DNA of 64,000 bases from Lachnospiraceae bacterium. Its GTDB lineage: Bacteria > Bacillota > Clostridia > Lachnospirales > Lachnospiraceae. The notes below the pieces were generated by a model. It worked only from the letters and a program-made list of their open reading frames with translations. It did no database searches and was not told the origin of the DNA. The position numbers were made by a program, and so were the translations under genes. Each line of letters begins with the position of its first letter. Within the stretch, counting starts at the first letter, position 1. The DNA is taken from positions 1-64,000 of the forward strand of contig JAJQEO010000010.1 in the NCBI GenBank assembly GCA_021201665.1, written 5' to 3'. This document shows, in pieces, positions 37,308 through 56,734 of the stretch.

Positions 37308-39239
37308 CTAGTCCTCGATCTCGACTTCCATGTGCACCTGCTCCCGCACAAGCTCATCGATCTCAATTTCAGACAATCTGCCCCGCTGCAGACCTTCGTC
37401 TGCCGCAAGCACAAATTTCACTTCCACCTGCACCTTCGCCACGTCAGCGATCAGCTGCTCCAGCTCCTGTTTGCGCTGTTCATTGTTCAGATAGCGTTCC
37501 CCAAAAAAGTCCGGAAACACCACATAAAGCCTGGTATCGCTCTCATCCTGAGCGTTGTATTTCGGTGTCGCGTTTAACAAATGTGTTTGAAATGGCTGCG
37601 GCGCATTTTTAGCAACACTCTTCCACATCCCGCAGATTTTTTTCAGATCTGCGGAGGCAGCCACCGGAAGGACAGAAGCATTCCCTCCGGGCACACTTCC
37701 AGATCGAAACATCTCTGCACCGCCAGCATAGCCTTCTGGTGCGCCACTGCCAACAGTCCAACCATTTTGCATACCAGAGCCATACGCTGTCGCGCCCATT
37801 TCCTGCGCATCTGCGCCATATACCGCGCCGACACCATACCTGCCGTCTGCCCCCTGCGGAGCATTTCCATACATGCCGCCGGCACCCTGTGGAGCACCTC
37901 CATACATGCCACCGGCACTCTGCGGAGCGTTCCCCGCTGCTGCGGAAACGCCCCCTCGCCCTGGCTCGGCGGCAAGTCGCGGCGGCATTCCGAAAACTGC
38001 TTCGCAGTTGGCCGCCGCTGCTGCGGATGCGCCCCCTCGCCCCGGCTCGGCGGCAGTTCGCGGCGGCATTCCGAAAACTGCTTCGCAGTTGGCCGCCGCT
38101 CTTTCCAGCTTGCGGATCCGCTCGACCAGAGAAATCTCATCGCTTTCCGCCTCCGGCTTGCACATCCTGATCAAAGCCATCTCCACCTGTACGCGCTTGT
38201 TCGTGGAGAAACGGATCGCGCCGGAGAGCTCCGACAGGATGCGGATATAGCGCATCAGGGTATCGTTGCGGACCATGGCGCCTTCCTCGCGCAGACGCGC
38301 CAGGCTCTCGGTCGAGACGTCCAGCACGTCTTCCATGTCGTCCGAGGATTTGAGCAGCATCAGATTACGCAGATACCAGGTGAAATCTGTCACAAACTGT
38401 GTCAGGTCCCGTCCCTGGCGGACCAGCGCCTCCAATGTACGGATGGCGCCGACCACATCGTCACGCAGAATTTTGCGGAGCAGGTCGCTGTACACGTCTG
38501 TGTCCACCGCTCCAAGCACCTCCAGCGCCCGGTCGTAGGTCAGCGTCTCGCCGATATAGAACGCAATGCACTGGTCAAGCAGACTGACCGCGTCACGCAG
38601 AGAGCCGTCGCCCTTTCTGGCGATGTAGCGAAGAGCCTTTTCCTCCGCGTCGACCTGCTCAACAGCCACAAGCTCCTGCAGCCTGGCAAGGATCGTATCC
38701 TGCGCGATTCGGTGAAAATCATATCGCTGGCAGCGTGATAAAATCGTGATCGGTATCCTCTGCACCTCTGTCGTCGCCAGAATAAAAATCACATAGGAGG
38801 GCGGCTCCTCCAGCGTCTTCAGAAGCGCGTTAAACGCCGCGTTCGAGAGCATGTGTACCTCGTCGATGATGTAGACTTTGAAGTGCCCTTCCGTTGGGGA
38901 GTACGCCACCTCATCACGGATCTGCCGGACATCGTCGACACCGTTGTTGGACGCGGCATCGATCTCAATAACATTCATCGAACTCCCCGCCGCGATCGCG
39001 CGGCAGGTCGGACACTCGTTGCAGGGATTTCCGTCCACAGGGTGCTCACAATTGACTGCTTTGGCAAAAATTTTCGCTACAGAGGTCTTTCCGGTGCCCC
39101 TGGTGCCGCAGAACAGGTAGGCGTGTCCCAGACGGTCTGCCCGGATCTGATTGGTCAGTGTCCTGACAATCGCGTCCTGTCCTTTCACTTCATCAAAGGT
39201 GGCCGGGCGAAATTTACGGTACAAAGCGGTGTAGCTCAT
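37308..39239 (-). CDS. dnaX: DNA polymerase III subunit gamma/tau
   Basis: 643 residues. P-loop FCGTRGTGKTS near 44, zinc Cys cluster CEHPVDGNPCNECPTC near 64-79, Walker B VYIIDEVHMLS, and the SRC motif ILSRCQRYDF. This is the clamp-loader ATPase of the replisome. After the conserved domain III (to ~375) comes an Ala/Gly/Pro linker holding two 27-residue copies of AANCEAVFGMPPR... and several GMYG-NAPQGA repeats, before the tau-like C-terminus. Start after GGAAAGGGG. The usual ybaB-recR neighbours do not follow, so the common operon is broken here. Confidence 0.95.
   Translation of the reverse strand: MSYTALYRKFRPATFDEVKGQDAIVRTLTNQIRADRLGHAYLFCGTRGTGKTSVAKIFAKAVNCEHPVDGNPCNECPTCRAIAAGSSMNVIEIDAASNNGVDDVRQIRDEVAYSPTEGHFKVYIIDEVHMLSNAAFNALLKTLEEPPSYVIFILATTEVQRIPITILSRCQRYDFHRIAQDTILARLQELVAVEQVDAEEKALRYIARKGDGSLRDAVSLLDQCIAFYIGETLTYDRALEVLGAVDTDVYSDLLRKILRDDVVGAIRTLEALVRQGRDLTQFVTDFTWYLRNLMLLKSSDDMEDVLDVSTESLARLREEGAMVRNDTLMRYIRILSELSGAIRFSTNKRVQVEMALIRMCKPEAESDEISLVERIRKLERAAANCEAVFGMPPRTAAEPGRGGASAAAAANCEAVFGMPPRLAAEPGRGGVSAAAGNAPQSAGGMYGGAPQGAGGMYGNAPQGADGRYGVGAVYGADAQEMGATAYGSGMQNGWTVGSGAPEGYAGGAEMFRSGSVPGGNASVLPVAASADLKKICGMWKSVAKNAPQPFQTHLLNATPKYNAQDESDTRLYVVFPDFFGERYLNNEQRKQELEQLIADVAKVQVEVKFVLAADEGLQRGRLSEIEIDELVREQVHMEVEIED
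37936..38097 (-). repeat. Two 81-bp in-frame copies in the dnaX linker
   Basis: CCCCCTCGCC recurs at 37951 and 38032 with nearly identical sequence between, giving a 27-residue duplication. Confidence 0.9.
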
Positions 39240-55172: not shown

Positions 55173-55554
55173 GGCAGATCACCTCCCCCGGCCATCCGAA
55201 ATGCATTTTCAGATATTGTTTTCGGGAAAATTAATAATCAAAGATTCCTTTCAGAAAAACATCCTTAAAAATCTTTTTACGGAGGTTTTTCGAAAACATT
55301 ACATACAGAAAAATATAAAGAACATATGTAAGATTTCTGTAAAAGATTTGTGAAAAGTATGTGAAAGTGTAGAACTAACGCAGAAAAAGCCCCCCGCGAG
55401 GGACGGCCTTTGAAGTACGATCGTCTATGTTTATTTGCAATTTCAATTCGTCACATTGCGCGCTGTCAGATCGGCGTTACAGTAAATTCGTATTTGTAAT
55501 AAATTATGTTGCATTTCTTTGAGATTAATGCTGAGATTGATATATAAAAAGGAT

Positions 55555-55583
55555 TTGACATTCTACCCTTATGTTCATATAAT
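55555..55583 (+). promoter_or_regulatory. Perfect sigma-A promoter of the structured RNA
   Basis: TTGACA, exactly 17 bases, TATAAT. Start of transcription expected near 55590. Confidence 0.85.
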
Positions 55584-55589
55584 ACAAAC

Positions 55590-55844
55590 GGAAACAGTAA
55601 ATGTTTCTCGTGTGGCGGCACGTAAAAGCTGTACTGTGCCTGGGCAGGGTAAATGCCAGGACTGATTAGATATTCGGAAGGATATCGCGCCCACACCTGG
55701 GAGATACGGTGAGTCCGCGCCGGGGACTTTCATTTCCGGCGACTGAATGTGCATCCGGAAGGTTGCCGCGGCTGACAGCCAGCATAAAACCGCTGATGAA
55801 ATTTTTAAGCCGGACGATTTTTATTGTCCGGCTCTTTCTGTCTT
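55590..55844 (+). ncRNA. Candidate structured RNA or leader with intrinsic terminator
   Basis: About 255 nt from the promoter to AGCCGGAC/GTCCGGCT (55808-55833) plus TCTTTCTGTCTT. Stems seen: GAAACA/TGTTTC at the 5' end; GTGTGG (55610)/CCACAC (55691) closing a multi-branch loop with GGCAC/GTGCC, CCTGGGCA/TGCCAGG and GATAT/ATATC; then CACC/GGTG, CGCCGG/CCGGCG and GCGG/CCGC with GGCT/AGCC. It could be an attenuating leader (riboswitch-like) of the PBECR4-like gene or a free RNA. I do not recognise a known class; a faint cobalamin-like string is noted but unconvincing. Confidence 0.6.
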
Positions 55845-55869
55845 AACTATACAGGAGATATCAAAAAGG

Positions 55870-56490
55870 ATGGAAATGAAACAGGATAGAATTGATATCG
55901 TAGATGCAATAAAAAAAGCCTCTTTATTATACAAAAATAATCTTGTCGGAAAACGTTTTATGTATGTTTTCGAGGATCGATACATAGAAGTAATCTACAA
56001 GGCAGAAAATTTCCGTCACCTGACTGGTGTGGATACAAAGCTTTCAGCACAGCAGTTTTACAAATATGCTGTTAGCGGAAAGCTGGAAGCCTCCCAGATC
56101 TGGTTCAGCCATGCGCATCCTTTTAAACTATGCAAGCGGAAGGTACAGCATATTGGTGATATTGCTCAGCTTGCCAGCACGGAGTGTTTTCTGCTCGAAG
56201 AAATACAGACAGATACGACTACCTATAAATTTGGCACGACAGATTTAAATTTTACACTTTGCCTGAACAAGGAAACAGACTCACAGGGTGTAGAAAAAAG
56301 CGAATGTTTCGTTGTTCACTCCCTGCGTGATGGGGACTGCTTCTCAAAAAGCGGCGAGGCTTATGAGGTAACTCATATTTTTTCAAGACAGAATGACAAG
56401 AAAAAATATACCGATCTTTTGTATATGGATGATACTTCCAGTCTGGAGTCTTTACCGCTCCAGATTAAGAATATGCTGGAGATAGAGTAA
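55870..56490 (+). CDS. PBECR4-like (phage Barnase-EndoU-ColicinE5/D-RelE-like) nuclease-domain protein
   Basis: 206 residues from the ATG at 55870 or 55876; AGGAGAT and AAGGATGG lie upstream. The open frame back to 55747 overlaps the terminator and is rejected. GKRFMYVFEDRYIEVIYKAENFRHLTGVD, LSAQQFYKYA and TTYKFGTTDLNFTLCL resemble PBECR4 proteins, a predicted RNase-toxin fold found in phage and mobile DNA. No membrane segment or signal is seen. It is expressed, if at all, past an intrinsic terminator, so read-through would be the control point. Whether it is an active nuclease is untested, and no immunity gene is visible. Confidence 0.6.
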   Translation: MEMKQDRIDIVDAIKKASLLYKNNLVGKRFMYVFEDRYIEVIYKAENFRHLTGVDTKLSAQQFYKYAVSGKLEASQIWFSHAHPFKLCKRKVQHIGDIAQLASTECFLLEEIQTDTTTYKFGTTDLNFTLCLNKETDSQGVEKSECFVVHSLRDGDCFSKSGEAYEVTHIFSRQNDKKKYTDLLYMDDTSSLESLPLQIKNMLEIE

Positions 56491-56709
56491 ACCATAAAAC
56501 GCCATGACAGGAAAACCGCAGTATATCCCCTTTTACCCTTTTTTTACCCTTCTTTACACAGCTTCTGACAAACCCCGATAAATTTTCAAAGTCCTGAAAA
56601 TCCTTGATTTCAGCGGCTTCCGGAGCTTTGACGAATGGCGATAACCTTTGATAAATCTGTGATTATATCCGTAAGATTTCTGTAAAAGATTTGTGAAAAG
56701 TATGTGAAA

Positions 56710-56734
56710 AAGCCGGGATGTTCCTGCCCGGCTT
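56710..56734 (-). terminator. Terminator of the ABC transporter operon
   Basis: AAGCCGGG/CCCGGCTT on the minus strand, followed by TTTTTCACATACTTTT, which is the edge of the 39-bp repeat. Confidence 0.8.

What the first reader, a model, noticed from the sequence alone, without database searches (positions are those of the whole stretch)
55328..56709. Repeat-bounded module carrying structured RNA and PBECR4-like nuclease gene
Two exact 39-bp direct repeats enclose a unit with its own perfect promoter, folded RNA, terminator and toxin-fold gene, but no recombinase. Such a self-contained unit could be a mobile cargo or a defence cassette not described before. The abutting ABC-operon terminator suggests the pre-insertion site was the terminator's T-rich flank.
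Basis: partly seen in the sequence, partly recalled or inferred. Interest (0 to 1): 0.78.

Follow-up and report, generated by a model that had tools for sequence, protein, structure and literature searches.

The report
RNA-paired nuclease toxin module, repeat-bounded
This short DNA insert in a gut bacterium carries a folded RNA followed by a predicted RNA-cutting toxin gene, and related genomes show that such RNAs and this toxin family travel together, which suggests a new family of RNA-guarded toxins and a role for a known but unexplained RNA called drum.

Summary
Observation confirmed. Two exact 39-bp repeats (55328-55366, 56671-56709), found nowhere else in the assembly, bound a promoter, a structured RNA, a terminator and a PBECR4 gene (PF18813, E 2.7e-24). 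G214 has an empty site with one repeat copy; G206 has the same two repeats around other cargo. The right end resembles DNA beside a tyrosine-integrase ORF.

The RNA (class A) is not in Rfam, shows strong covariation and, in 25 of 39 distinct loci, precedes PBECR4 or its remains. In 397 family genomes 59 of 93 PBECR4 loci have one of three RNAs directly upstream: Rfam drum RNA (31), a pseudoknotted two-unit class B (22) or class A (6). From the RNA side, 31 of 43 drum hits are so placed; wrong-side controls gave 0. RNA class follows the toxin tree (3 changes, the minimum; shuffled mean 31.4). Three Enterococcus/Streptococcus plasmids carry drum plus PBECR4, an Erysipelothrix phage class B plus PBECR4.

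Best reading: a type III-like toxin-antitoxin superfamily with RNA antitoxins. Toxicity, neutralisation and nuclease activity are inferred, not shown.

The parts
55328..55366 (+). left 39-bp direct repeat (putative att site copy)
   Evidence: exact copy; only two in the assembly; single copy with one mismatch in G214, two exact copies in G206
55374..55507 (.). left-end remnant shared with the other insert at the same site in G206
   Evidence: 85% identity to L045 3900-4034; about 450 bp nearer the repeat than in G206, so the window copy has lost DNA here or G206 gained it
55555..55583 (+). consensus sigma-70-type promoter
   Evidence: 12 of 12, spacer 17
55582..55833 (+). structured RNA, class A, ending in an intrinsic terminator (stem 55808-55833)
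   Evidence: model R1 match 55582-55800, 219.8 bits (the window is one of the sequences R1 was built from); covariation; terminator; no Rfam match
55870..56490 (+). PBECR4 gene, 206 aa, predicted nuclease toxin
   Evidence: PF18813 E 2.7e-24; AGGAG ends 12 nt before the start
56533..56670 (.). right-end region like the ends of tyrosine-integrase elements
   Evidence: 91% to G206 (216 aligned bases, repeat and flank included); 77% to L054 5803-5938, about 860 bp from an integrase ORF; 74% (repeat included) to L053 4177-4350, on a contig whose ORFs look like phage terminase by eye
56671..56709 (+). right 39-bp direct repeat (putative att site copy)
   Evidence: exact copy
56710..56734 (-). terminator stem-loop of the ABC operon whose T-rich tail is the repeat (insertion site)
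   Evidence: read by eye; same arrangement at the empty site of G214

Best explanation
The unit is an integrase-type insertion that lost, or never carried, its integrase. It sits between two att-like 39-bp repeats and carries a two-part toxin module. The RNA is transcribed from its own strong promoter and mostly stops at the terminator; occasional read-through makes the PBECR4 mRNA. The RNA is kept in excess and binds and inactivates the PBECR4 protein, as type III antitoxins and RCd22 (with AbiF) do. When transcription or RNA supply falters (phage infection, or loss of the element), free PBECR4 cuts cellular RNA and stops growth. This gives abortive infection or keeps the element in the population. 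Shown here: the anatomy, the empty site, RNA conservation and covariation, linkage of three RNA classes to PBECR4, and the match between RNA class and toxin clade. Inferred: transcription, RNA-protein binding, toxicity, RNase activity, trigger and benefit.
For: From the protein side: of 93 PBECR4 loci found by Pfam in 397 genomes, 31 have drum, 22 class B and 6 class A directly upstream; the sets do not overlap. From the RNA side: drum, an outside Rfam model, 31 of 43 hits (41 of the 43 are over its gathering score); class A 6 of 16, the window included; class B 22 of 43, but 16 of the 22 were among the sequences its model was built from, so 6 of 27 others. Wrong-side control 0 for each. Layout: 27 of 27 testable upstream regions, from the 30 best-scoring PBECR4 loci, hold a promoter-like site and 19 of 27 a terminator, against 5 and 3 of 29 control ORFs. 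RNA class follows toxin clade: 3 changes for 4 classes, shuffled mean 31.4. RNA outlives toxin: 7 of 38 RNAs without a PBECR4 hit have a PBECR4 remnant behind them, none in the reverse-strand control below E 1; several class A RNAs stand before a truncated or frameshifted PBECR4. The two class-A-type PBECR4 copies in the genus without a class A RNA are both broken pieces. The window's genome holds three modules with three RNA classes. Class B: two tandem units and three interlocked 4-bp loop pairings in 20 of 20 sequences, as type III antitoxins are pseudoknots (PMC5086642, PMC4627078, passages). Plasmid and phage carriage.
Against: No expression or activity data. PBECR4 is a nuclease only by Pfam's name: no PDB sequence match, a modest model (pLDDT 68.6), no informative fold match. 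34 of 93 PBECR4 loci have none of the three RNA classes; of the 28 that I read, 7 carry 34-36-nt repeats, others other hairpin-rich leaders, and several (L180, L182, L196, L236, L237) show none that I could see, all by eye. 21 of 43 class B hits and 12 of 43 drum hits have no PBECR4 hit behind them, and 14 of 39 distinct class A loci have neither PBECR4 nor a remnant; of 38 RNAs without a PBECR4 hit that I checked, 31 showed no remnant. So these RNAs may do more than guard PBECR4. Class A itself has no clear tandem repeats. In the tree class B is not one clade (2 changes; one origin in 1% of bootstrap trees). Mobility rests on one empty site and one differing insert.
Confidence: 0.7

Rival explanations
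1. The RNA is a cis-acting leader (attenuator or riboswitch) that controls read-through into a PBECR4 gene and has no trans function.
For: RNA, terminator and gene lie in that order on one strand; RCd22 also acts partly at the level of transcription (PMC12373285, passages).
Against: RNAs persist where PBECR4 is gone or broken; several quite different RNA classes precede one protein family and follow its clades; three RNA classes cluster without a visible PBECR4 in L103.
Confidence: 0.17
2. The RNA is an activating cofactor or guide for PBECR4 rather than its inhibitor, as in RNA-directed effectors.
For: Co-inheritance of RNA class and protein clade fits any obligate RNA-protein complex.
Against: RNA kept while the protein gene decays; layout and loop pairings match type III antitoxins.
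Confidence: 0.08
3. The repeats arose otherwise (for example by duplication), and G214 lost the DNA by recombination between them; the unit is not an inserted element.
For: Only one empty site and one differing insert are known; direction cannot be read from three genomes.
Against: G206 has the same two exact repeats around different DNA, and the right end is homologous to DNA near an integrase ORF.
Confidence: 0.12

Closest known systems
AbiF-RCd22 of Clostridioides difficile (abiF RNA motif RF03085)
   Same: Promoter, RNA, Rho-independent terminator, then toxin gene; the RNA neutralises the toxin in cis and in trans (PMC12373285, abstract and passages).
   Different: The toxin is an Abi_2/AbiD/F protein, not PBECR4; the RNA family differs; no Rfam abiF match in the sources scanned here.
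Type III toxin-antitoxin systems ToxIN, CptIN, TenpIN
   Same: Layout; tandem units and loop-to-linker pairings across A-rich linkers in class B; 34-36-nt repeats in class F by eye.
   Different: Known type III toxins resemble MazF/Kid in fold (PMC5086642, passages); PBECR4 has no sequence match to any PDB chain and belongs to another Pfam family.
drum RNA (RF02958)
   Same: It is the RNA upstream of one large PBECR4 clade.
   Different: The window RNA (class A) does not match it. I found no stated function for drum in the passages read: it is named as a metagenome-based Rfam family and studied for its covariation and kink-turn.
Cis-mobilizable elements (CIMEs)
   Same: att-like ends without a recombinase.
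   Different: No integrative partner at the same site seen; about 1.3 kb only; movement not shown. The concept is recalled; the term was seen in a search listing only.

Membership tests
Type III toxin-antitoxin system | RNA gene directly upstream of the toxin gene, one promoter in front | tested here: met
   Sequence layout only, no transcripts:
Type III toxin-antitoxin system | Rho-independent terminator between RNA and toxin gene | tested here: met
   Window 55808-55833; 19 of 27 loci against 3 of 29 controls
Type III toxin-antitoxin system | Antitoxin RNA made of tandem repeats | tested here: inconclusive
   Class B has two tandem units, class F short repeats by eye; the window's class A has only two similar hairpins with alike loops
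Type III toxin-antitoxin system | Pseudoknotted antitoxin | tested here: inconclusive
   Class B: helices 2-6 paired in 100% of cells, helix 1 in 70%; number of pair types not above shuffles. Class A: only a short loop-to-3'-end complementarity read by eye
[quoted passage not shown]
   No PDB sequence match; fold comparison uninformative; Pfam assigns PBECR4
Type III toxin-antitoxin system | RNA binds and neutralises an RNase toxin | not testable with these tools
   needs kill/rescue and binding assays
PBECR4 family (PF18813) | Match above the curated cut-off | tested here: met
   87 bits, cut-off 27; 18 of 18 ORFs of A4 match PF18813 at E up to 0.001
PBECR4 family (PF18813) | BECR nuclease fold and RNase activity | tested here: inconclusive
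   Model pLDDT 68.6, low in 105-126, 155-165 and 174-190; no informative match
drum RNA (RF02958) | Covariance-model match of the window RNA | tested here: not met
   Searches (gathering; E up to 5) list no drum match in the window RNA
Insertion without its own integrase (CIME-like) | Direct-repeat att copies, empty site with one copy, no recombinase inside | tested here: met
Insertion without its own integrase (CIME-like) | Mobilised in trans by a related integrase | not testable with these tools
   only homology of the right end to DNA near an integrase ORF

The most novel reading that the evidence does not exclude
PBECR4 proteins are the toxins of a large superfamily of RNA-neutralised toxin-antitoxin systems. 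Its antitoxins include the orphan drum RNA, the new class A and class B RNAs and short tandem-repeat RNAs, and toxin clades have their own RNA architectures. Class B, the RNA of Erysipelothrix phage phi1605 included, closes on itself through three loop-to-linker pairings that are kept while their letters change. Copies of these RNAs without a toxin, such as the drum, class A and class B cluster in Clostridium sp. AT4, act as stand-alone shields against incoming PBECR4 elements.
Probability: 0.45. Interest if true: 0.9.

Novelty: new variant of a known kind. Interest (0 to 1): 0.82.

Why it matters
It gives a testable partner and function to drum, a structured RNA for which I found no stated function. 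It adds at least two RNA classes that matched no Rfam 15 family in my scans, and turns PBECR4, known by a predicted-nuclease name, into a candidate toxin with RNA antitoxins on chromosomes, plasmids and a phage. The review that I saw in passages sorts type III systems into three families whose solved toxins share one fold (PMC5086642), with AbiF as a recent relative; this would be a large further branch, with several antitoxin architectures for one toxin family. PADLOC-DB 2.0.0 gave no match for the three PBECR4 proteins tested.

Full report
What is there. Two exact 39-bp direct repeats lie at 55328-55366 and 56671-56709. A scan of the held assembly with 3 mismatches allowed found no other copy, and none of the reversed control pattern. 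Between them, on the plus strand, are a 12-of-12 promoter (55555-55583), an RNA with a terminator stem at 55808-55833, and an ORF of 206 codons (55870-56490) that matches Pfam PBECR4 with E 2.7e-24. I saw no recombinase among the ORFs listed between the repeats. The right repeat is the T-rich tail of the minus-strand ABC-operon terminator (stem 56710-56734, read by eye).

The insertion. In G214 the flanks overlap by exactly 39 bp: one repeat copy with one mismatch, an empty site. In G206 two exact 39-bp copies enclose about 2.7 kb of other DNA with a 605-aa ORF (HATPase_c_4), and share with the window a left-end remnant and about 126 bp before the right repeat. That right end is 77% identical to DNA about 860 bp from a tyrosine-recombinase-like ORF in G213 (L054; best NCBIfam match 76 bits, under that model's cut-off) and 74% identical, repeat included, to a contig end in G218 whose ORFs look like phage terminase by eye (L053). 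For the other 44 genomes the listed matches do not show the flanks together. So the unit looks like an integrase-type insertion without its integrase; gain here and loss in G214 cannot be told apart from these genomes.

The RNA (class A). Rfam 15 has no match. A pattern from its core found 20 stretches in a collection of one genome for each of 84,980 species: 19 are this RNA, in Lachnospiraceae, Oscillospiraceae and other Clostridia (two of them halves of one split locus), and one (Mycobacterium) I judged a chance coding match by eye. Viral contigs gave 0. On 16 aligned RNAs 97.4% of 799 cells pair, 16 of 50 pairs show changes on both sides (shuffled mean 9.0, 0 of 500 as high), and sliding the partners drops pairing to 38.5-49.1%; the number of pair types, 36, is not above shuffles, 35.2. 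A covariance model (R1) found it in 9 of 47 congeneric genomes and 16 of 397 family genomes, one of them the window's in both. Of these, 20 have a PBECR4 ORF behind the terminator, intact, truncated or frameshifted (18 confirmed by Pfam; L096 and L100 by eye); 5 only a remnant (L116 and L117 by profile; L097, L125 and, weakest, L050/L088 by eye); 14 none.

PBECR4 genes at large. An independent Pfam search found PBECR4 in 72 of 397 family genomes (65 over Pfam's cut-off), 97 rows that merge to 93 loci. Reading upstream of these genes showed leaders of several unlike classes. Of the 30 best-scoring loci, given to a script, 27 had enough upstream DNA: 27 of 27 hold a promoter-like site and 19 of 27 a terminator, against 5 and 3 of 29 other mechanical ORFs in the same loci (simple patterns). 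Rfam named the leader drum RNA, RF02958, in 9 of 19 loci scanned, each over its gathering score. A search for drum in the 397 genomes gave 43 hits in 36 genomes, 41 hits over the gathering score; 31 of 43 have a PBECR4 domain starting 14-204 nt downstream on the same strand. Class A gives 6 of 16, the window included. A second new class, B, was aligned from 20 leaders and searched as model R2: 43 hits in 35 genomes, 22 with PBECR4 92-207 nt downstream. Sixteen of those 22 were among R2's own sequences, 19 of its 20 having been picked upstream of PBECR4, so from the RNA side only 6 of 27 others count. An RNA downstream of, or opposite to, PBECR4 within 500 nt was not seen (0 drum, 0 A, 0 B). 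The three sets do not overlap and cover 59 of 93 PBECR4 loci. Of the other 34 I read 28: 7 carry 34-36-nt tandem repeats (class F), others other hairpin-rich leaders, and at least 5 nothing visible, all by eye; 6 were not read.

The genus. In the 47 congeneric genomes a PBECR4 profile gave 17 loci. Class A RNA lies before 6 and, weakly (26 bits), before a seventh, L138; class B before 7, three of which (L140, L143, L145) were not used to build R2. L139 has neither. The last two, L135 and L136, are class-A-type pieces without an RNA, and both are broken fragments.

Structure of class B. It has two tandem units. Three 4-nt pairings join hairpin loops to linkers: the 5' hairpin loop with the 3' end, the loop of unit 1 with the start of unit 2, the loop of unit 2 with the start of unit 1. 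All three pair in 20 of 20 sequences, with compensatory changes in each. The stem of the 5' hairpin pairs in 70% of cells in this alignment, and the number of pair types, 11, is under the shuffled mean, 14.1. The RNA before the PBECR4 of Erysipelothrix phage phi1605 (L245), not in the alignment, matches R2 with 59.3 bits and keeps the three complementarities with other letters, read by eye: CUUGA/UCAAG, UUGG/CCAA, CAAG/CUUG. Loop-to-linker pairing with an A-rich linker recalls type III antitoxin pseudoknots (PMC5086642 and PMC4627078, passages).

Co-inheritance. A tree of 62 PBECR4 proteins (64 chosen for their RNA class, two with stops dropped; class F by eye; class A loci and three plasmid copies from outside the 397 genomes included) needs 3 changes for 4 classes, the fewest possible; shuffled labels need 31.4 on average. 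Drum, A and F each form one side of a well supported branch; B needs 2 changes, with L171, a long branch whose R2 match is weak (28.4 bits), lying apart. The program warns that the long A and F branches meet and that near-copies alone make labels cluster. The window's own genome holds three PBECR4 modules, one each of classes A, B and drum.

RNA without toxin. I checked 38 RNAs that lack a PBECR4 hit (17 of 21 class B, 11 of 12 drum, 10 of 10 class A): 7 have a PBECR4 remnant behind them at E below 0.2, while the reverse-strand control has none below 1. In Clostridium sp. AT4 (L103) a drum, a class A and a class B RNA lie within 700 bp with no PBECR4 among the ORFs listed. Loss of toxin with RNA kept is what a toxin-antitoxin pair predicts; a cis-only leader would have little reason to stay. 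Most RNAs without toxin, however, show no remnant (31 of 38), so other roles remain open.

Carriage. Of 22 plasmid records with a PBECR4 match (1, 21) I opened four: three Enterococcus/Streptococcus plasmids have drum over its gathering score directly upstream; the Butyrivibrio plasmid pCY360 has a 485-bp stretch without annotated gene before PBECR4, with no match to Rfam, R1 or R2.

How it most likely works. By analogy with ToxIN and with RCd22-AbiF, where the RNA neutralises the toxin in cis and in trans (PMC12373285, abstract and passages), I propose that the RNA holds PBECR4 inactive and that loss of RNA supply frees it. Layout, covariation, linkage, clade match and RNA-only relics are shown; toxicity, binding, RNase activity and the trigger are inferred. 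Against it: the nuclease label rests on Pfam; the structure model is modest (pLDDT 68.6) and gave no informative match; no PDB sequence matches; class A lacks clear tandem repeats. Membership in type III proper is therefore open, while working like type III is well supported.

Novelty. In the open library no paper holds the word PBECR4, and the drum searches gave no functional report in what I saw; the passages read concern its covariation and kink-turn and its entry into Rfam. The original drum paper was not available. PADLOC-DB gave no match for three PBECR4 proteins; PHROGs lists the family as unknown function.

Noticed in passing
window 37940-38023 (-): GA-cis RNA (RF02987), 53.6 bits, in the same window; GA-cis also lies near class A RNAs in L109 and L113.
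   Followed up: no
L103 1639-2317: Clostridium sp. AT4: drum, class A and class B RNAs clustered within 700 bp, no PBECR4 among the listed ORFs; possible antitoxin-only island.
   Followed up: partly
L086, L098, L092, L101: Class A RNA in four genomes; in L086, L092 and L101 a parB-like gene lies downstream (by eye). PBECR4 is present in L086 and L098 and not seen in L092 and L101.
   Followed up: partly
L119 386-1711 (-): Class A RNA 128 nt upstream of an Abi_2/AbiD gene instead of PBECR4.
   Followed up: no
L111 33-1773: The RNA-PBECR4 unit lies between two cobalamin riboswitches.
   Followed up: no
L045 4189-6006 (-): Different cargo between the same 39-bp repeats in G206: 605-aa protein with HATPase_c_4.
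   Followed up: partly
L208, L217, L212: Class B RNAs without PBECR4 sit beside what look like other toxin-antitoxin gene pairs, judged by eye from the ORF starts.
   Followed up: no
control genome: The PBECR4 family also rings in the Lactococcus lactis control genome; whether an RNA precedes it was not checked.
   Followed up: no
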